From: Nocardia sp. NBC_00565
Lineage (GTDB): Bacteria; Actinomycetota; Actinomycetes; Mycobacteriales; Mycobacteriaceae
NCBI RefSeq assembly: GCF_036345915.1
Contig: NZ_CP107785.1
Coordinates: 1,860,001 to 1,924,000 of the forward strand
Direction of reading: 5' to 3'
Length of the DNA: 64,000 bases
A model generated the notes under the pieces. That model ran no database searches, was not told the origin of the DNA, and saw nothing but the letters and a program-made list of their open reading frames with translations. Positions 4,281 through 45,795 of the stretch are shown here, one piece after another; positions within the stretch are counted from its first letter, which is position 1; each line of letters starts with the position of its first letter. The position numbers and the translations under genes were made by a program.

Positions 4281-4382
4281 ACCCCACAGCTCGGCCCGGA
4301 GTGACGAGGGCGACACGGTCGGGCAGGGTCCAGTGGCGTCATTCGTTGCGCGCGCGGCATAAACTGACCATGCGTCGCCGCC

Positions 4383-4600
4383 GTGCGGGAGAGTCCCGGC
4401 CTTCACAAGAGGTCCGGGCGCCGAAGGAGCAGCACCTCCCCGTCAATCTCTCAGGCAGCAAGGACCGTACGGGCTTCGACGTCTCTGGAAAGTGGTGACA
4501 ACCGCGCAGCGCGGTGGTCACCCGCCCATGGGGAAAGGGGCCCGGCCGGTGTGGTCGTTGGTCCTGAATCTCTCAGGCTCCACGACAGAGGGGGAGGGCT
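4383..4600 (+). promoter_or_regulatory. tandem glycine riboswitch upstream of gcvP
   Basis: Aptamer 1 (about 4383-4492) contains the conserved GCGGGAGAGTCCCGGC start, the GCCGAAGGAGCA loop, ATCTCTCAGGCAGCAAGGAC and the closing CTCTGGAAAG. A short linker leads to aptamer 2 (about 4500-4600) with GGGGAAAGGGGC, AATCTCTCAGGC and GACAGAGGG. Two consecutive aptamers are the classic glycine-sensing arrangement. The first codon of gcvP follows 49 bases later. Aptamer 2 departs from consensus in its GAAGG loop (GGAAAGG). In this family the riboswitch usually turns glycine catabolism on when glycine is plentiful; that direction is inferred here. Confidence 0.93.
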
Positions 4601-38383: not shown

Positions 38384-38776
38384 CTACTGCTTCGGCGGCG
38401 CAGTATCTTCGGATGCCTCGAGCTTAGCGAGTGCTTCGCGCAACGCATCCGTATCGTCCCTGCCGACCTGTTCGACGAAGTGCACGAGCGCCGCCGCGCG
38501 GCTACCCGCGGCGTCGGCCTGCTGCAGTGCGTCGACCATCAAACTGGCCACCAGTTCGTCACGGGTGTGCACCGGCGCGTAGCGGTGAGCGCGGTCGTCA
38601 CGCCGCTGCACCACTAGGTTCTTCTTCGCCAGCCGTTGCAGCACCGTCATCACCGTGGTGTACGCGAGCTCACGGCGGGCGGCCAAAGCCTCGTGTACCT
38701 GCCGTACGGTCTGCGGCTCGTCACTGGACCACAGTTGGTCCATGACCGCTTTCTCGAGTTCACCAAGTCCTGCCAT
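38384..38776 (-). CDS. blaI: BlaI/MecI-family transcriptional repressor
   Basis: 130 aa. Winged-helix domain (about 5-75; LEKAVMDQLWSSDEPQTVRQ, then YTTVMTVLQRLAKKNLV) and a dimerisation tail (85-120). Represses beta-lactam response and, in mycobacteria, ATP-synthase and its own operon. Precedes the M56 peptidase by 64 bases. A half-conserved TACTAC...GTCGTA site lies upstream. Confidence 0.95.
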   Translation of the reverse strand: MAGLGELEKAVMDQLWSSDEPQTVRQVHEALAARRELAYTTVMTVLQRLAKKNLVVQRRDDRAHRYAPVHTRDELVASLMVDALQQADAAGSRAAALVHFVEQVGRDDTDALREALAKLEASEDTAPPKQ

Positions 38777-38873: not shown

Positions 38874-39710
38874 CTACTGGCGAACTGCGCCCGGCAGTGT
38901 CTCAAAGGCGGCCAGGACGTGTCTGGTCCCGATCGGCACGATCATCGGTCGACCGGAGACCGGATCCTCCAGCACGGACGCGTCGAGATCGAAGACCTCG
39001 CGCAGCAGCGCGACATTGATGATGTCGGTAGGCGCTCCCTGTGCCACGATGCGTCCGTCGCGCATGACGATGAGTTGGTCGCTGTAGCGGATGGCCAGGT
39101 TGAGATCGTGCAGCACCATCACCACGGTGCGGCCGAGGTCGCAGTGCAACCGGTCGACCAGGTCCAGGACCTCGATCGAATGCGCGAGGTCGAGGTAGGT
39201 GGTCGGCTCGTCGAGCAGCAGGATGTCGGTGCCCTGGGCCAACGCCATGGAGATCCAGGCCCGCTGGCGCTGACCGCCGGACAACTCGTCGAGTGCGCGA
39301 TCGGCCAGATCGGCGATGCCCGTCGCCCCGAGTGCGGTCATGACTTCTGATTCGTCGGTGGCCGACCACTGGCGGATCCAGGACTGGTGCGGATGACGTC
39401 CGCGCGCAACGAGATCCGCGACGGTCAGGCCCTCGGGCGCGACCGGCGACTGCGGCAACAAGCCGATGATGCGCGCGACATCCTTGGTCTTCATCGACGA
39501 GATCGCCTTGCCGTCCAACAGGATTCGGCCCTGCCGCGGGTGCAGCAGGCGGCCGAGCGCGCGCAGCAGGGTCGATTTGCCGCAGCCGTTGGGGCCGATG
39601 ACGGTGGTGACCACACCGGGGGCGATGTCGATGCTGAGTCCGTCGACGACCACGCGGTCGCCATAGCCGAGGGTGACTTCCTGTGCGGAGAGCCGTATGC
39701 CGGTGGTCAT
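38874..39710 (-). CDS. ferric-siderophore ABC transporter, ATPase subunit (FepC-like)
   Basis: 278 aa. Walker A GPNGCGKST, Q-loop LLPQSPVAPEGLTV, signature LSGGQRQRAWI, Walker B ILLLDEPT and the switch histidine in VLHDLN. The RGRHPHQSW insertion is typical of FecE/FepC/FhuC. The ATG overlaps the upstream permease stop as ATGA. Energises siderophore import together with the two permeases. Confidence 0.93.
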   Translation of the reverse strand: MTTGIRLSAQEVTLGYGDRVVVDGLSIDIAPGVVTTVIGPNGCGKSTLLRALGRLLHPRQGRILLDGKAISSMKTKDVARIIGLLPQSPVAPEGLTVADLVARGRHPHQSWIRQWSATDESEVMTALGATGIADLADRALDELSGGQRQRAWISMALAQGTDILLLDEPTTYLDLAHSIEVLDLVDRLHCDLGRTVVMVLHDLNLAIRYSDQLIVMRDGRIVAQGAPTDIINVALLREVFDLDASVLEDPVSGRPMIVPIGTRHVLAAFETLPGAVRQ

Positions 39711-40843
39711 GACAGGGTCGCCTTCCGATTCATGCGCACGAGCAGGTAGAGCAGGAACGGCCCGCCGAAGGCGGCGGTCACGACGCCGACCGGTAGATCG
39801 ACCGGAAACAGCTTGCGCGAGGCCACATCCGCACCCACCACCAGGATGGCACCGACGAATGTCGAGCCGATGAGCGGTTCGCCCGGAGTTCGCAGCAGTC
39901 GCCGCGCGATCTGCGGTGCGGCCAGCGCGACGAATCCGACCGGACCAACGGCGGCGGTCGCCACGGCGGAGGCGACGACGGCCGCGCCGATCAGCAGCGC
40001 CTGCTGGGTCTGGATGCGCACACCGAGCGCCCGGATGGTCTCGGTGCCGAGGCGCAGTGCGGCAAGGGTTCTGGCCGAGCCGACCGCCACGATCACGACA
40101 ATGGCCAGTGCCAGAGCGGCCGGGATCAATTTGGTTCGGTCCGCGCCATTGAGCGAGCCGTTGAGCCAGAGCTGGACGCGGACCGCGTCCTGCAGGCTGG
40201 CACGGGTGAGCAGAAAGCTGATGCCGGACAACAACAATGCGTTCACGCCGATGCCGATCAGCACCAGGCGCAGCGGTGTGACGCCGCGGTCGCCGGTGGC
40301 GCTGCGGCCCCACGCGAGGAGATAGATCGCGACCGCCGTGAGCAGACCACCCGCGAGCGCGGCCAGCGGTGCGCCGATGCTCGCGGCGAGTCCCGTTGTC
40401 GCGCCGCCGGTGCCGACGAGCACCGCGACCGCGCCGAGGCTCGAGCCGGTCGTGATGCCGAGGATGTCCGGCGCGGCGAGTGGGTTGTGCAGGATGGACT
40501 GGGTGATCGCACCCGAGATGCCGAGTGCCGCACCGACGACGAGTGCGGTAAGTGCGCGCGGCAGCCGGGACTCCAGCACGATGAAGCGCTGGGCGCGGGT
40601 GCCACCGCCGGTGAGCACGTCGAGTACCCGGCCGATGGGAATGTGGGTGTCGCCGAAGGCGATGTCGAGGCAGAACAGTGTGAGCAGTGCCGCGGCCAGG
40701 ATTGCGATGGTGAGCATCATCGCAGGTCGCAGCACCAGCGATACCGGGCCGATGCGGAGCGCAGGTCGGACGCGGTGCAGGGGCGATGCCGCGGTCGGTG
40801 TCTCGTGCCCGACGGGCGCGGTATCCGAGCTGTGTTCACTCAC
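39707..40843 (-). CDS. FecCD-family siderophore permease
   Basis: 378 aa, about ten membrane helices. Family signature ESRLPRALTALVVGAALGIS then GAITQSILHNPLAAPDILGI. The GTG at 40843 overlaps the stop of the partner permease as GTGA. Pairs with the other FecCD subunit as the channel. Confidence 0.93.
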   Translation of the reverse strand: MSEHSSDTAPVGHETPTAASPLHRVRPALRIGPVSLVLRPAMMLTIAILAAALLTLFCLDIAFGDTHIPIGRVLDVLTGGGTRAQRFIVLESRLPRALTALVVGAALGISGAITQSILHNPLAAPDILGITTGSSLGAVAVLVGTGGATTGLAASIGAPLAALAGGLLTAVAIYLLAWGRSATGDRGVTPLRLVLIGIGVNALLLSGISFLLTRASLQDAVRVQLWLNGSLNGADRTKLIPAALALAIVVIVAVGSARTLAALRLGTETIRALGVRIQTQQALLIGAAVVASAVATAAVGPVGFVALAAPQIARRLLRTPGEPLIGSTFVGAILVVGADVASRKLFPVDLPVGVVTAAFGGPFLLYLLVRMNRKATLS

Positions 40844-41910
40844 AAGCTCACCAGCTTCTTGCGACGAACCAGCACGATGAAGAACGGCGCACCGATCGCG
40901 GCGATCACCACGCCGACCTGTAATTCGCCCGGCCGAGCCACAATTCGCCCGACCACATCGGCGACGAGCAGCAGCAATGCACCGAGCAACCCCGAGTACG
41001 GGATCAGCCAGCGATAGTCGGGACCGGTGAAAACCCTTGCAATATGCGGCACGACCAGCCCGATGAACGCGATCGGGCCGACCGCCGCCGTGGCCGCACC
41101 ACACAACAAGACGACCGCGGCCAGCCCGAGCATGCGGCTGCGCCCGATATTCACTCCGAGCCCGCGCGCGACCTCGTCACCGAGGCTGAGCAGATTCAAT
41201 CCGGGCGATGCCGCGACGGCCAACAGCACCCCGATCGCCAGAAACGGCAGCACCTGCCAGAACACCTCGGCATCGCGGCCGCTCACCGTGCCCACCACCC
41301 AGAACCGATACGTGTCCAGCGCCGCATTATCCATCAGCACAATGGTGTTCGTCATCGCCTGCAGGAACAACGTCACCGCGGCACCGGCCAGCACCAAGCT
41401 GAGTGGACTGGCCTTGCCGCCGATCGCCGACACCCCGAAGACCACCAGCCCCGCGATGAGTGCCCCCGCGAAGGCGAACCAGATGTACTGCTCGGGCTCG
41501 GTCAGCGAAAACAGGTAAATACTCAACGCCGCAAGGAATGCCGCGCCCGCGTTCAGTCCGAGCAGGCCCGCGTCGGCGAGCGGATTGCGGGTGTAGCCCT
41601 GCATCAGTGCGCCCGCCATACCCAGTGCGAGCCCGGTGACCAGCGCAAGTGCGGTGCGCGGCAAGCGAAGTTCGCGCACGATCTCCTCCGCCGTCGAACC
41701 GGCGGGGCAGCTGAACGGCCCGCCCGCACAGGTGAGGGCGTTGTGCACGGCGTCGTAAACGGTGCCGGGGGACAGTGATCGGGTGCCGATCGCGATGCTG
41801 GCCACCGTGGCGAGCAGTAGCAGCACGGCCAGCAGGACGAGTCCGCGTCGACGCCGGCGCGCTGGATTCGTTCGTCGCGCCCCCGGCGCGGTGATGCTTG
41901 ATGCCGTCAC
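40840..41910 (-). CDS. FecCD-family siderophore permease
   Basis: 356 aa, about ten membrane helices; LRLPRTALALVTGLALGMAG then LMQGYTRNPLADAGLLGLN is the family signature. First gene of the three-gene operon. An IdeR-type box lies 47 bases before its GTG. There is no substrate-binding lipoprotein in the operon, so the transporter must borrow one from elsewhere. Confidence 0.93.
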   Translation of the reverse strand: MTASSITAPGARRTNPARRRRRGLVLLAVLLLLATVASIAIGTRSLSPGTVYDAVHNALTCAGGPFSCPAGSTAEEIVRELRLPRTALALVTGLALGMAGALMQGYTRNPLADAGLLGLNAGAAFLAALSIYLFSLTEPEQYIWFAFAGALIAGLVVFGVSAIGGKASPLSLVLAGAAVTLFLQAMTNTIVLMDNAALDTYRFWVVGTVSGRDAEVFWQVLPFLAIGVLLAVAASPGLNLLSLGDEVARGLGVNIGRSRMLGLAAVVLLCGAATAAVGPIAFIGLVVPHIARVFTGPDYRWLIPYSGLLGALLLLVADVVGRIVARPGELQVGVVIAAIGAPFFIVLVRRKKLVSL

Positions 41911-41956: not shown

Positions 41957-41975
41957 TCTGGTAAGCCTAACCTAT
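41957..41975. promoter_or_regulatory. IdeR/DtxR-type iron box between divergent genes
   Basis: TCTGGTAAGCCTAACCTAT; the right half matches the IdeR consensus half AGCCTAACCTAA closely, the left half more loosely. It lies between the permease gene and the gene at 42020 and can serve both. Predicts repression by iron-loaded IdeR. Confidence 0.7.
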
Positions 41976-42019: not shown

Positions 42020-42730
42020 ATGTCCGAGCCAGTGACGACCTGCATGTCTCGCCCTGCCGAGGCCTTCGGGCGAGCATGTGCACGGCTGCGCACGCTGCAA
42101 CCCGAACATCCGCGGGTGTACGCGGTGGCCGCGATGTTCGACCAGGGCAAACGCCGATGGTGGCGGCTCGCCGACGGATTGCGGGAGGGCCGCATCGAGC
42201 TGATGTATCGGCGCCACGCGGCGGAGATGATCAGCGCCGACACCGCCGCCGAAGTGGTGGCGACCGCGCTCATCCACGCGGTGATCGGCCGGGTGGTCGC
42301 CTTGCTGGTGGCCGAGGGGCGGGCGTGGGATCCAGGGCTCGAGAATCTGTGGATCCATGCCGACAACGACGGTGGTATCGACTGGGCCGGCCTGTCCGAC
42401 ACCACGATTCGGGTGCTCGACGGCGATCGGCTGGCCGGGGATCCCGGCGTGGTGACATTGCCGTGCGAGCAGGCCATGTATGTCTGGCTCGCGCATCGCT
42501 GCGAGCCGTCGCTGCGGCTGATCCAGCGCACGTTGGCGGGGTGTGCCGGTCTCGGCGAGCGTCGATTCTGGTTGCTGGTCGGTGAATCCATCGCCGGCGC
42601 GGCCACTTACGTGCCGGATCTGGCGCGGACCGATTCGATTGTCGGCGCTCGCCGTGGCGAAGGCCTGCGCACGGCCCTGGAAGAGCGCGGCTTGCCGGTG
42701 CGGCGCGCAGTGGGTTGCTTAGTTAGGTAA
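42020..42730 (+). CDS. iron-regulated protein of the FhuF/siderophore-utilisation type (tentative)
   Basis: 236 aa; the ATG has GAGGAGG upstream. Segments AFGRACARLRTLQPEHPRVY, ALIHAVIGRVVALLVAEGRA, WIHADNDGGIDWAG and RRFWLLVGESIAGAATYV resemble siderophore reductase/FhuF-like proteins. The C-terminus ends RRAVGCLVR and does not show the CCxxxxxxxxxxCxxC iron-sulfur motif of true FhuF. Iron control is suggested by the IdeR box 45 bases upstream and the divergent siderophore transporter. A role in releasing iron from a siderophore or in siderophore assembly is likely but unproven. Confidence 0.6.
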   Translation: MSEPVTTCMSRPAEAFGRACARLRTLQPEHPRVYAVAAMFDQGKRRWWRLADGLREGRIELMYRRHAAEMISADTAAEVVATALIHAVIGRVVALLVAEGRAWDPGLENLWIHADNDGGIDWAGLSDTTIRVLDGDRLAGDPGVVTLPCEQAMYVWLAHRCEPSLRLIQRTLAGCAGLGERRFWLLVGESIAGAATYVPDLARTDSIVGARRGEGLRTALEERGLPVRRAVGCLVR

Positions 42731-42744
42731 GCCTGACCTATACT
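42715..42744 (+). promoter_or_regulatory. sigma-A-like promoter overlapped by an IdeR box, in front of the sRNA candidate
   Basis: TTGCTT (42715-42720), 18 bases, TATACT (42739-42744). The IdeR-like box TTAGGTAAGCCTGACCTAT occupies 42723-42741, 16 of 19 matches to TTAGGTTAGSCTAACCTAA, and so covers the spacer and the -10. IdeR bound here would block transcription. The box overlaps the stop codon of the upstream gene. Confidence 0.8.
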
Positions 42745-42750
42745 GAATTC

Positions 42751-42848
42751 GGCGTTGGGATCGGCAGAGTGTTCCGGAGGGCTGCCGCGAACCCCCGATC
42801 CACTGCCGCGGCGGGCTCCACGTGCGTGTGGAGCCCGCCGCTCTGTAC
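42751..42848 (+). ncRNA. iron-responsive small RNA candidate (MrsI-like by position)
   Basis: A non-coding segment of about 98 nt between an IdeR-controlled promoter and a 14-bp hairpin. It can fold as an outer stem GGATCGG (42758-42764) with CCGATCC (42795-42801), or an alternative inner stem CGGCAG (42762-42767) with CTGCCG (42782-42787), exposing GTGTTCCGGAGGG. The place just before the PaaI-like thioesterase and after blaI is where M. tuberculosis carries MrsI (between Rv1846c and Rv1847), an IdeR-controlled sRNA used in iron sparing. Homology is inferred from synteny and promoter design; start and end are predicted. Confidence 0.7.
42808..42848 (+). terminator. hairpin ending the sRNA candidate
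   Basis: GCGGCGGGCTCCAC and GTGGAGCCCGCCGC form a perfect 14-bp stem with loop GTGCGT, followed by TCTGTACT. A T-tract is poor, as usual in actinobacteria. Confidence 0.75.
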
Positions 42849-42926
42849 TAGGCGCACGATGTCGCCCGCTCCGGAGATCGGGGAGGGCCGGAAAGGCGCG
42901 GTCGGCGACTGTGTCAAGGTGAATGC

Positions 42927-43373
42927 ATGACGCAACAGGAAACCGCGGACGTCCGCTCGCTGGCAGACCTCACGCCGGAGCAGATGACCAAGCTCAGCGA
43001 GGGCAGCTTCAGTGACCTGATCGGCCTGAAGTTCACCGAGCTGAGTCCGGACCGGGTGCGTGGCGAGTGGACCGTCCGGCCGCAGCTGTATCAGCCCGCC
43101 GGCATCCAGAACGGCGGCGTGTACTGCACCGTCATCGAAACGCTCGCCAGCGTCGGTGGCGGCGTCTGGTACGGCGAGCGCGGGACCGTCGTCGGGGTGA
43201 ACAACAACACCGACTTCCTGCGCGCGGTCCGCGAGGGCACGCTGTACGGCGAGGCGACTCCGGTGCATCGGGGTCGGCTGCAGCAGTTGTGGGTCGTGGT
43301 CATCACCGATGACAGCGGCCGCACAGTGGCCAGGGGGCAGGTCCGGCTGCAGAACCTGCCCCAGCAGGACTGA
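42927..43373 (+). CDS. PaaI-type hotdog thioesterase (Rv1847-like)
   Basis: 148 aa, one hotdog domain: QPAGIQNGGVYCTVIETLAS carries the catalytic helix start, GVNNNTDFLRAVREG the dimer strand, VHRGRLQQLWVVVITDDSGR the last strands. Hydrolyses an acyl-CoA or aromatic-CoA; substrate unknown. Precedes ureA as Rv1847 does. It may share transcription with the iron-regulated sRNA promoter upstream if the terminator leaks. Confidence 0.9.
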   Translation: MTQQETADVRSLADLTPEQMTKLSEGSFSDLIGLKFTELSPDRVRGEWTVRPQLYQPAGIQNGGVYCTVIETLASVGGGVWYGERGTVVGVNNNTDFLRAVREGTLYGEATPVHRGRLQQLWVVVITDDSGRTVARGQVRLQNLPQQD

Positions 43374-44077: not shown

Positions 44078-45795
44078 GTGAATTGAGCCGCGCCCGTTAC
44101 GCCGAACTCTTCGGCCCGACCACCGGCGATCGAATTCGCCTGGCGGACACCGATCTGTTGATCGAGATCACCGAGGACCGCAGCGGCGGACCGGGACTCG
44201 CGGGTGATGAGGCCGTCTTCGGCGGCGGCAAGGTGCTGCGCGAATCCATGGGCCAAGCCCGCGCGACCCGTGCCGAGGGCACCCCCGACACCGTGATCAC
44301 CGGTGCGGTCATCATCGACCACTGGGGAATCATCAAGGCCGACATCGGTATTCGTGACGGCCGCATCTGCGCGATCGGTAAGGCGGGCAACCCGGACACC
44401 ATGAACGGGGTGCATCCGGATCTGGTGGTCGGGCCGAATACCGAGATCATCGCGGGCAACGGTCGGATCCTCACCGCGGGCGCTATCGACTGTCACGTGC
44501 ACTTCATCTGCCCGCAGTTGATGGACGAGGCGCTCGGCGGCGGCATCACCACCCTGATCGGCGGCGGCACTGGTCCCGCCGAGGGTTCCAAGGCGACCAC
44601 CGTGACGCCCGGATCCTGGCACCTGGCACGGATGTTGGAAGCCACCGACGGCTGGCCGATGAATATCGTATTGCTCGGCAAGGGCAATACGGTCAGCGCC
44701 GAATCCATGTGGGAGCAATTGCGCGGCGGCGCGGCCGGTTTCAAGCTGCACGAGGACTGGGGGTCGACCCCCGCCGCGATCGATGCCTGCCTCACCGTCG
44801 CGGAAGTGGCGGGCGTGCAGGTGGCGCTGCATTCGGACACGTTGAACGAGGCCGGATTCGTCGAGGACACCCTGGGCGCCATCGCGGGACGCGGCATCCA
44901 CGCGTATCACACCGAGGGGGCGGGTGGCGGGCACGCGCCCGACATCATCACTGTCGCCGCACATCTGAACGTGCTGCCCAGCTCGACCAACCCGACCCGG
45001 CCGCACACGATCAACACCCTGGACGAGCACCTGGACATGCTCATGGTGTGTCATCACCTCAGCGCGTCCATCCCGGAGGATCTCGCGTTCGCGGAGAGCC
45101 GGATTCGGCCGTCCACCATCGCCGCCGAGGACCTGCTGCACGATCTGGGCGCGATCTCCATGATCGGCAGCGATTCCCAGGCTATGGGCCGCATCGGCGA
45201 GGTCGTCATGCGAACCTGGCAGACCGCGCACGTGATGAAGCGGCGTCGTGGCGCGCTGCCCGGTGACGGTGCCGCCGACAACGCCAGGGTGCGGCGCTAT
45301 ATCGCGAAGTACACGATCTGCCCGGCGATCGCGCACGGCCTCGACCACGAAATCGGTTCGGTAGAAGTAGGCAAGCTCGCCGATCTGGTGCTGTGGGACC
45401 CCGCGTTCTTCGGTGTCCGTCCGCACGCAGTCCTCAAGGGCGGTGCGATCGCCTGGGCCGCCATGGGTGACGCCAACGCCTCCATTCCGACGCCGCAGCC
45501 GGTGCTTCCGCGCCCCATGTTCGGTGCCGCGCCGCTGGTCGCCGCGGCAACTTCGGTGCATTTCGTTTCCGAACAGGCCGTCGAGGACGGTCTCGCCGAA
45601 CGCTTGGGCCTGCGCCGAAAACTGGTCCCCGTCAAGAACGTTCGCCGTGTCACCAAGGCGGATATGCCCAACAACGACGCCATGCCGCGCATCGAAGTCG
45701 ACCCGGACACTTTTACTGTCCGCATCGACGGTGAGGTCTGGACCGAACAACCCGCGACCGAGTTGCCCATGGCCCAGCGGTATTTCCTGTTCTGA
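44074..45795 (+). CDS. ureC: urease alpha (catalytic) subunit
   Basis: 573 aa. Nickel ligands in DCHVHF, the carbamylated lysine Lys224 in GFKLHEDWG, the [12 protein letters not shown] block and the mobile-flap MVCHHL are all present, so the active site is complete. The accessory genes ureFGD are 7.2 kb further on, separated by unrelated genes. Confidence 0.98.

What the first reader, a model, noticed from the sequence alone, without database searches (positions are those of the whole stretch)
42715..42848. IdeR-controlled small RNA candidate in the MrsI position
A complete small transcription unit is visible: TTGCTT-18-TATACT promoter, a 16/19 IdeR box over its spacer and -10, about 98 nt without a reading frame, two competing internal stems and a 14-bp terminator hairpin. 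The flanks (blaI on one side, PaaI-like thioesterase and ureABC on the other) are those of MrsI, the iron-sparing sRNA of M. tuberculosis. If confirmed, it extends this sRNA beyond mycobacteria. A siderophore transport unit with its own IdeR box has been inserted between blaI and it.
Basis: partly seen in the sequence, partly recalled or inferred. Interest (0 to 1): 0.85.

Follow-up and report, generated by a model that had tools for sequence, protein, structure and literature searches.

The report
Iron-controlled small RNA, MrsI, in Nocardia
This stretch of a Nocardia genome appears to encode a roughly 100-letter regulatory RNA under an iron-sensing switch, the counterpart of the iron-sparing RNA MrsI known from mycobacteria, and the same RNA with the same 7-letter loop turns up in most of the related genera examined.

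Summary
In detail: an IdeR box (42723-42741), a -10 hexamer, a ~100-nt RNA and a 14-bp terminator stem lie where described. The unit is present in 34 of 34 Nocardia loci fetched through the neighbouring thioesterase and in 147 of 150 Nocardia genomes. A covariance model built from Nocardia alone finds it in 24 of 31 genera of the GTDB family at E<=1, including the genus I infer to be Mycobacterium, beside the Rv1847 orthologue, the published MrsI position. Its hairpin has a 7-nt loop AGGGCUG, intact in 67 of 69 model matches read, whose closing stem occurs in four compensatory forms, the window's included. Published MrsI has a 7-nt apical loop and represses bfrA; CAGCCCU, the exact loop complement, lies 26-27 nt before the bfrA start in 4 of 9 mycobacterial loci read. 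I file it as an MrsI orthologue. Expression and Nocardia targets are untested; target scans gave no consistent excess over control.

The parts
42715..42720 (+). -35-like hexamer TTGCTT, at the 3' end of the FhuF-like gene
   Evidence: read directly; TTG at this place in most Nocardia relatives; not picked up by the generic scan
42723..42741 (+). IdeR box TTAGGTAAGCCTGACCTAT, overlapping spacer and -10
   Evidence: 1 mismatch to TTAGGTNAGSCTNACCTAA; 0.01 matches expected in the window at <=3 mismatches; best box of 14-18 of 19 in 43 of 43 relatives scored, against 132 of 3000 random 110-nt stretches reaching 14 (those stretches come from loci that hold real boxes)
42739..42744 (+). -10 hexamer TATACT
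   Evidence: read directly; TATACT or a near form in the Nocardia relatives
42751..42848 (+). sRNA, MrsI orthologue (5' end inferred from -10 spacing; 3' end after the terminator)
   Evidence: models R1/R2; folding z = -4.28
42758..42801 (+). outer stem GGAUCG 42758-42763 with C-GAUCC 42796-42801
   Evidence: 96.3% of cells paired in 45 sequences; one pair C-G in 30 and U-A in 10
42771..42792 (+). inner hairpin GUUC-CGG [loop] CCG-C-GAAC
   Evidence: middle pair of the loop-closing stem: U-A 35, C-G 7, A-U 2, G-C 1 (window)
42778..42784 (+). 7-nt loop AGGGCUG, the proposed seed
   Evidence: intact in 67 of 69 R1 matches read without regard to the loop; in 40 of 40 Nocardia stretches; unpaired probability 0.92-1.0
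42808..42841 (+). terminator hairpin, 14 bp, 6-nt loop
   Evidence: all 12 pairs tested have changes on both sides among 45 sequences, 95.7% of cells paired
42020..42730 (+). FhuF/IucC-C-terminal-like protein (236 aa), neighbour with an IdeR box upstream
   Evidence: no Pfam or NCBIfam match itself; several homologues are named FhuF-like or iron reductase, and 4 of the 120 listed carry PF06276
41957..41975 (.). second IdeR box, between the divergent importer and FhuF-like gene
38877..41910 (-). FecC-FecD-FecE-type siderophore importer
   Evidence: PF01032 twice and ABC_tran
38387..38776 (-). BlaI-type repressor
   Evidence: PF03965, 1.6e-28
42927..43373 (+). hotdog thioesterase, Rv1847 orthologue
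   Evidence: best PDB match 3s4k = Rv1847, E 2.3e-42; PF03061

Best explanation
It is the Nocardia orthologue of MrsI, a trans-acting sRNA. Iron-loaded IdeR sits on the box over the -10 region and blocks transcription; when iron falls IdeR leaves, and a ~100-nt RNA is made that ends at the conserved terminator. The outer stem and inner hairpin present a 7-nt loop, AGGGCUG, that pairs with CAGCCC(U) in the 5' regions of mRNAs for dispensable iron-using proteins and lowers their expression, sparing iron. Shown here: box, covarying RNA structure, near-invariance of the loop, homology and synteny with the mycobacterial RNA, an IdeR gene in the genome. Inferred: transcription and its iron control, base-pairing through the loop, and the targets in Nocardia.
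For: A Nocardia-only model (R1) finds the RNA in 103 of 151 family genomes at E<=0.01 and 119 of 151 at E<=1. R2, which was trained on several of these genera, gives E<=1.5e-5 in 46 of 55 family genomes and in 0 of 243 genomes of other families (the split 55/243 is read from the order of a list that shows 94 of 298 rows), and E<=0.001 in 147 of 150 Nocardia. Position: a same-strand Rv1847-like thioesterase downstream in 34 of 34 non-Nocardia loci scored, its midpoint 303-734 nt away except one at 3.1 kb. Covariation: 124 cells with both sides changed against 28.6 in shuffles, 0 of 500 as high; slid partners pair in 32-50% of cells against 95.8%. Loop complement CAGCCCU at -26/-27 of bfrA in 4 of 9 g29 loci (L210, L212, L216, L217), bfrA being a published MrsI target and MrsI being described with a 6-nt seed, a 7-nt apical loop and an IdeR site (reviews). 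IdeR present: E 5e-108 to PDB 1fx7.
Against: No transcript data. The M. tuberculosis MrsI sequence itself was not retrieved: the best Rv1847 match among 248 g29 genomes was 83%, so identity with MrsI rests on position, IdeR box, loop length and the bfrA site. 23 of 50 bfrA start regions have no CAGCCC, this genome's among them, and a 2025 paper says tools predicted no favourable binding energy for any confirmed MrsI target (PMC12395582, passage). Loop-complement sites ahead of starts are not in excess: in this genome 7 against 8 in the backward control and 79 against 84; of the 5 genomes only G048 exceeds its control (48 against 37). 5 g29 genomes lack a match; in the 4 of them read the RNA is gone or decayed.
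Confidence: 0.87

Rival explanations
1. It is a cis-acting leader or attenuator of the thioesterase-urease genes: the terminator is read through under some condition and the hairpins sense it.
For: In the window and 13 of 34 Nocardia loci the IdeR box lies 153-218 nt upstream of the thioesterase start on the same strand; the RNA has alternative stems.
Against: In 17 of 34 Nocardia loci the box is more than 1.1 kb from the thioesterase, and in 4 the RNA is on the opposite strand, yet loop and structure are kept; an alpha-carbonic-anhydrase-like gene intervenes in the one such locus read (motif recalled). All 12 terminator pairs tested covary.
Confidence: 0.06
2. A conserved IdeR-regulated RNA that works through something other than loop-mRNA pairing, for example by binding a protein or another RNA.
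For: The loop is kept in genera whose bfrA regions read here lack the complement (23 of 50 regions have no CAGCCC); no consistent excess of complement sites near starts; tools reportedly predict no favourable pairing for confirmed MrsI targets (PMC12395582, passage).
Against: Published MrsI is described as acting by direct pairing on bfrA with a 6-8 nt seed (review), and CAGCCC is in the 60 nt before bfrA in 23 of 30 best-scoring loci against 1.4 in Markov-shuffled sequence (related sequences, not independent).
Confidence: 0.13
3. Chance coincidence of an IdeR box and a terminator, or a small protein gene.
For: Open GTG and TTG frames of 53 and 55 aa exist.
Against: Conserved and covarying in 45 sequences; no common start or frame among 35 Nocardia sequences.
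Confidence: 0.01

Closest known systems
MrsI (ncRv11846) of Mycobacterium tuberculosis and M. smegmatis
   Same: Intergenic position between blaI and the Rv1847 thioesterase; IdeR box at the promoter; ~100 nt, structured, terminator; 6-nt seed and 7-nt apical loop (PMC8628891 passages; PMC11188477 section 18; PMC12101431 passage). Homologous by covariance model to the RNA at that place in g29 genomes.
   Different: Most Nocardia read have a C-G instead of a U-A middle pair in the loop-closing stem, and the window a G-C pair plus one extra pair below; a siderophore importer and FhuF-like gene lie between it and blaI; no bfrA site here; iron response not shown.
B11/6C sRNA of mycobacteria
   Same: Another mycobacterial sRNA whose promoter and seed regions are said to be conserved in Nocardiaceae and Gordoniaceae while regulated processes differ (PMC12395582, passage).
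   Different: A different RNA, not tied to iron in the passages seen; no homology to it was tested.
RyhB, PrrF, FsrA, IsrR (iron-sparing sRNAs of other phyla)
   Same: Same logic: an iron repressor controls an sRNA that lowers iron-using proteins.
   Different: Fur- rather than IdeR-controlled (Fur for FsrA from a passage of PMC9410917; the rest recalled); no sequence relation is claimed or was tested.
RipA of Corynebacterium glutamicum (recalled)
   Same: DtxR-controlled iron sparing.
   Different: A protein repressor, not an RNA; not examined here.

Membership tests
MrsI | Lies between blaI (Rv1846c) and the Rv1847 thioesterase, on the thioesterase's strand | tested here: met
   Window: BlaI 38387-38776 (-), thioesterase 42927-43373 (+), with importer and FhuF-like gene between BlaI and the RNA. 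In 4 of 34 Nocardia loci the RNA is inverted.
MrsI | IdeR box at the promoter | tested here: met
   42723-42741; 43 of 43 loci scored 14-18 of 19.
MrsI | ~100 nt, highly structured, intrinsic terminator | tested here: met
   the U run is weak in the window and the generic scan misses it.
MrsI | 7-nt single-stranded apical loop carrying the seed | tested here: met
   AGGGCUG 42778-42784. The loop letters of the tuberculosis RNA itself were not seen; 37 of 37 fetched g29 loci with an Rv1847 relative carry an R2 match containing AGGGCTG (six of those genomes also supplied rows to R2).
MrsI | Sequence/structure homology to the mycobacterial RNA | tested here: met
   Nocardia-only model R1 hits all 9 g29 genomes of the sample beside the Rv1847 orthologue, E 7e-6 to 7e-3.
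MrsI | Target bfrA by direct pairing | tested here: not met
   In this genome the bfr gene has no CAGCCC from -110 to +60. This is a target of the mycobacterial RNA rather than a feature of the RNA, so I do not let it exclude membership.
MrsI | Induced by iron starvation | not testable with these tools
   no expression data
Rfam families | Match to any Rfam 15 family at its gathering score | tested here: not met
   none overlapping the RNA at gathering score in the window; five sub-threshold matches over 42600-42960

The most novel reading that the evidence does not exclude
The RNA is a family-wide iron-sparing regulator older than the genus Mycobacterium, and bfrA is only a lineage-specific target: the loop has stayed fixed in genera (Nocardia among them) where the bfrA genes sampled are absent or lack the complementary site, so a different, still unknown, shared set of targets must hold AGGGCUG constant while its stem is free to flip by compensatory change.
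Probability: 0.5. Interest if true: 0.68.

Novelty: new member of a known kind. Interest (0 to 1): 0.56.

Why it matters
In the listings and passages I saw MrsI is described only for mycobacteria, and no Rfam 15 model matches it here at gathering score; the primary paper is not held, so its own remarks on conservation were not seen. Showing that the RNA belongs to most of a bacterial family, with a near-invariant 7-nt loop and four interchangeable stems, turns a single-genus sRNA into a comparative system: the loop is pointed out as the active part, harmless relatives such as laboratory Rhodococcus become candidate hosts for testing it, and the patchy bfrA sites ask what its ancestral targets are.

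Tried and rejected
Generic promoter/terminator scan: finds neither element. Rfam at low threshold: only sub-threshold matches. RNAalifold's inner stem GUCC/GGGC: set aside because the alternative hairpin has compensatory changes, with all four Watson-Crick forms at one pair; R1 was nevertheless built with the RNAalifold structure. Hits outside the family: of the 26, all E >= 0.002, the two best (G584, G410) were read; no loop and no good IdeR box (best 13 and 9 of 19), only a terminator-like stem. Target search: CAGCCCT + GGAG + ATG gave in G000, G048, G082 7, 4, 5 matches against 8, 7, 8 in the backward control; reading the 16 frames behind them I recognised one Rieske-type protein (motif recalled) in G082 and no other iron protein. 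So no Nocardia target is claimed. Looking for the M. tuberculosis genome by Rv1847: best match 83% in 248 g29 genomes, not obtained. Gerrick et al. 2018, the primary MrsI paper, is not held. PMC3388012 (2012, conserved mycobacterial sRNAs): 0 occurrences of Rv1846 or Rv1847 in its main text.

Rows dropped: one search scored 34 of 40 non-Nocardia loci (5 missed by my regular expression although one search shows the core; L175 because its weak R1 match lay outside the fetched stretch) and 9 of 34 Nocardia loci. A2 holds 45 of 49 loci chosen for genus spread; the choosing script looked for GGGCTG with a paired stem, so loop invariance and loop-stem pairing in A2 are partly built in; L150 and L174 fell out because their loops differ, L031 and L157 for other parts of the expression. 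I therefore counted the loop again on matches chosen without it: 68 of 69 R1 matches held as sequence contain AGGGCTG, but in L174 the word lies elsewhere and its core loop is one letter short, so 67 of 69; L150 has TGGGCTG. A1 has 32 of 35 Nocardia sequences. bfrA: 50 of the 69 matches were read, 30 of those 50 used.

Full report
What is there. The + strand at 42715-42848 carries TTGCTT (42715-42720), an 18-nt spacer and TATACT (42739-42744), with an IdeR-type box TTAGGTAAGCCTGACCTAT at 42723-42741. A scan of the 64-kb window with TTAGGTNAGSCTNACCTAA at up to 3 mismatches gives this box (1 mismatch) and a second at 41957-41975 (3 mismatches), against 0.01 expected in shuffles. The 98-nt transcript folds at -58.6 kcal/mol (z = -4.28; 0 of 200 shuffles as stable). 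The generic sigma-70 and terminator scans detect neither element, so the argument rests on comparison. The genome is inferred to be a Nocardia: all 34 named relatives found by the thioesterase are Nocardia; the window lies in a 9.7-Mb genome.

Conservation in Nocardia. All 34 Nocardia loci contain the unit with an IdeR box. The box lies 153-218 nt upstream of the thioesterase start on the same strand in 13, more than 1.1 kb upstream in 17, and the RNA is on the opposite strand in 4, so it is not tied to that gene. Genus-wide, model R2 matches 147 of 150 genomes at E<=0.001 (146 of 147 good-quality ones); one genome (G737) has two strong copies 17 kb apart.

Homology beyond Nocardia. Model R1, built from 32 Nocardia sequences, finds matches at E<=1 in 119 of 151 genomes and 24 of 31 genera of the GTDB family; 103 of 151 are at E<=0.01. 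Of the 16 weaker ones I read six (G028, G030, G036, G037, G081, G125): all carry the core, G081 with a loop one letter short; five were scored for an IdeR box, 16-17 of 19. The other ten were not read and may include chance matches. The window's thioesterase has Rv1847 of M. tuberculosis as best PDB match (3s4k). The genus whose thioesterases resemble Rv1847 most (65-81%, up to 83%) is g29, which I infer to be Mycobacterium, also because it is very large (248 genomes drawn from more); names are not given. All 9 g29 genomes of the sample have the R1 match next to that gene, and 37 of 37 fetched g29 loci carry an R2 match with AGGGCTG in it (six of those genomes also supplied rows to R2). That is the position published for MrsI: between blaI and Rv1847 at 2096766-2096867 (PMC8628891, passages), start ~100 nt upstream of Rv1847, IdeR site in M. 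tuberculosis and M. smegmatis (PMC11188477, section 18).

Limits of distribution. On 298 genomes of the order, R2 gives E<=1.5e-5 in 46 of 55 family genomes and in 0 of 243 others (split read from the order of a partly shown list); 26 others have weak matches (E 0.002-0.1), and the best two, read, are bare terminator-like stems. Within the family, five g29 and four g3 genomes of that sample lack a strong match. In the four of these g29 genomes I read, the thioesterase is there but the best IdeR-like word scores 12-13 and no intact core is left; two show clear remnant-like sequence (CTGAGGGTCTGC...CGACCC) and two fainter ones. The RNA seems to have decayed in that lineage. g3 has 2.2-3.0-Mb genomes and is probably Corynebacterium (inferred, unnamed).

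Structure. Outer stem GGAUCG/C-GAUCC, inner hairpin, 7-nt loop and a long terminator. In 45 sequences chosen for genus spread (A2) 95.8% of cells pair; 124 cells have both sides changed against 28.6 in column shuffles (0 of 500 as high); slid partners pair in 32-50%. The middle pair of the loop-closing stem is U-A in 35, C-G in 7, A-U in 2 and G-C in 1 (the window). A2 was picked with a script that asked for GGGCTG and a paired stem, so I counted the loop on unselected matches: intact in 67 of 69 R1 matches read, and the word is present in 37 of 37 g29 stretches, 56 of 56 top R2 loci, and 40 of 40 further fetched Nocardia stretches. Those 40 are 39 places (L312 and L349 overlap) and a few are genomes already among the named loci (L310 shows the sequence of L032, L318 that of L031). 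Within Nocardia the stems CCG/CGG, CGG/CCG, CAG/CTG and CTG/CAG all occur. The window thus departs from the Nocardia majority in the core only in ways that preserve the hairpin. Its loop is single-stranded with probability 0.92-1.0 in the full-length RNA; the first 51 nt alone fold otherwise.

Context. BlaI and a BlaR-like M56 peptidase lie beyond a FecCDE siderophore importer and a 236-aa FhuF-like protein. The importer also lies upstream of the RNA in g6, g20, g21, g22, g23, g24, g26 and g27, with BlaI seen beyond it in L167; 5 of 6 g29 loci scored have the FhuF-like gene alone between BlaI and the RNA; g2, g7, g8, g9, g11, g17, g19 and g30 loci have BlaI directly upstream. So the block is a recurrent arrangement, not a private insertion. 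The genome encodes an IdeR (E 5e-108 to 1fx7) and a second DtxR-family protein closest to 5zr4.

Targets. As a positive control I looked at bfrA, a published MrsI target. Among 50 bfrA start regions (-110 to +60), 27 contain CAGCCC. In 4 of 9 g29 loci (L210, L212, L216, L217) the full complement CAGCCCU lies at -26/-27, just ahead of the ribosome-binding site; in g11 and g20 CAGCCCUCC lies at -44 to -51. In the 30 best-scoring loci CAGCCC is in the last 60 nt in 23, against 1.4 by a Markov model, and it is the commonest of the 30 words of its composition; these loci are related, so this is indicative only. Against it: the bfr gene of the window's genome has no such site, nine other sampled Nocardia have no bfr match at E<=1e-40, the g7, g9, g16, g17, g23 and g24 regions read lack CAGCCC, a 2025 paper states that tools predicted no favourable binding for any confirmed MrsI target (PMC12395582, passage), and scans for loop-complement sites near starts gave no consistent excess over control (one of five genomes above its control). 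The Nocardia targets are open.

Mechanism and verdict. The best-supported reading is an IdeR-repressed, trans-acting, iron-sparing sRNA orthologous to MrsI, with AGGGCUG as its seed. Homology and structure are shown; transcription, iron response, pairing and targets are inferred. In the listings and passages I saw, none describes MrsI outside mycobacteria; the primary 2018 paper is not held. There is a precedent for such reach: another mycobacterial sRNA, B11, is said to be conserved in Nocardiaceae and Gordoniaceae. I rate this a new member of a known kind. After checking I lowered the main confidence from 0.88 to 0.87 and interest from 0.57 to 0.56, because of the statement on predicted MrsI pairing and the B11 precedent.

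Noticed in passing
window 42020-42730 (+) and 41957-41975: FhuF/IucC-C-terminal-like protein without Pfam or NCBIfam match, divergent from a FecCDE importer with an IdeR box between them; its last codons overlap the sRNA's -35 and IdeR box. A relative lies upstream of the sRNA in many of the loci.
   Followed up: partly
G737:C64:171983-172087 and 188987-189095 (L317, L316): One Nocardia genome has two copies of the sRNA 17 kb apart, both with loop AGGGCUG.
   Followed up: no
L273, L274, L275, L276: Four g29 genomes keep the thioesterase but have no intact sRNA; two show clear remnant-like sequence.
   Followed up: partly
window 44241-44530 (-): Rfam RF02514 (5' ureB sRNA) matches antisense to ureC at 57.1 bits; probably conservation of the urease coding sequence rather than an sRNA (not tested).
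   Followed up: no
window 4376-4477 (+): Glycine riboswitch (RF00504, 60.5 bits).
   Followed up: no
L003:5086-5892 (+): An alpha-carbonic-anhydrase-like gene (motif recalled) lies between the sRNA and the thioesterase in this locus; a gap of similar size is seen in other Nocardia.
   Followed up: partly
G000:C1:4641291-4641746 (L237): This Nocardia has a bacterioferritin gene that nine other sampled Nocardia lack at E<=1e-40; possibly acquired, not tested.
   Followed up: no
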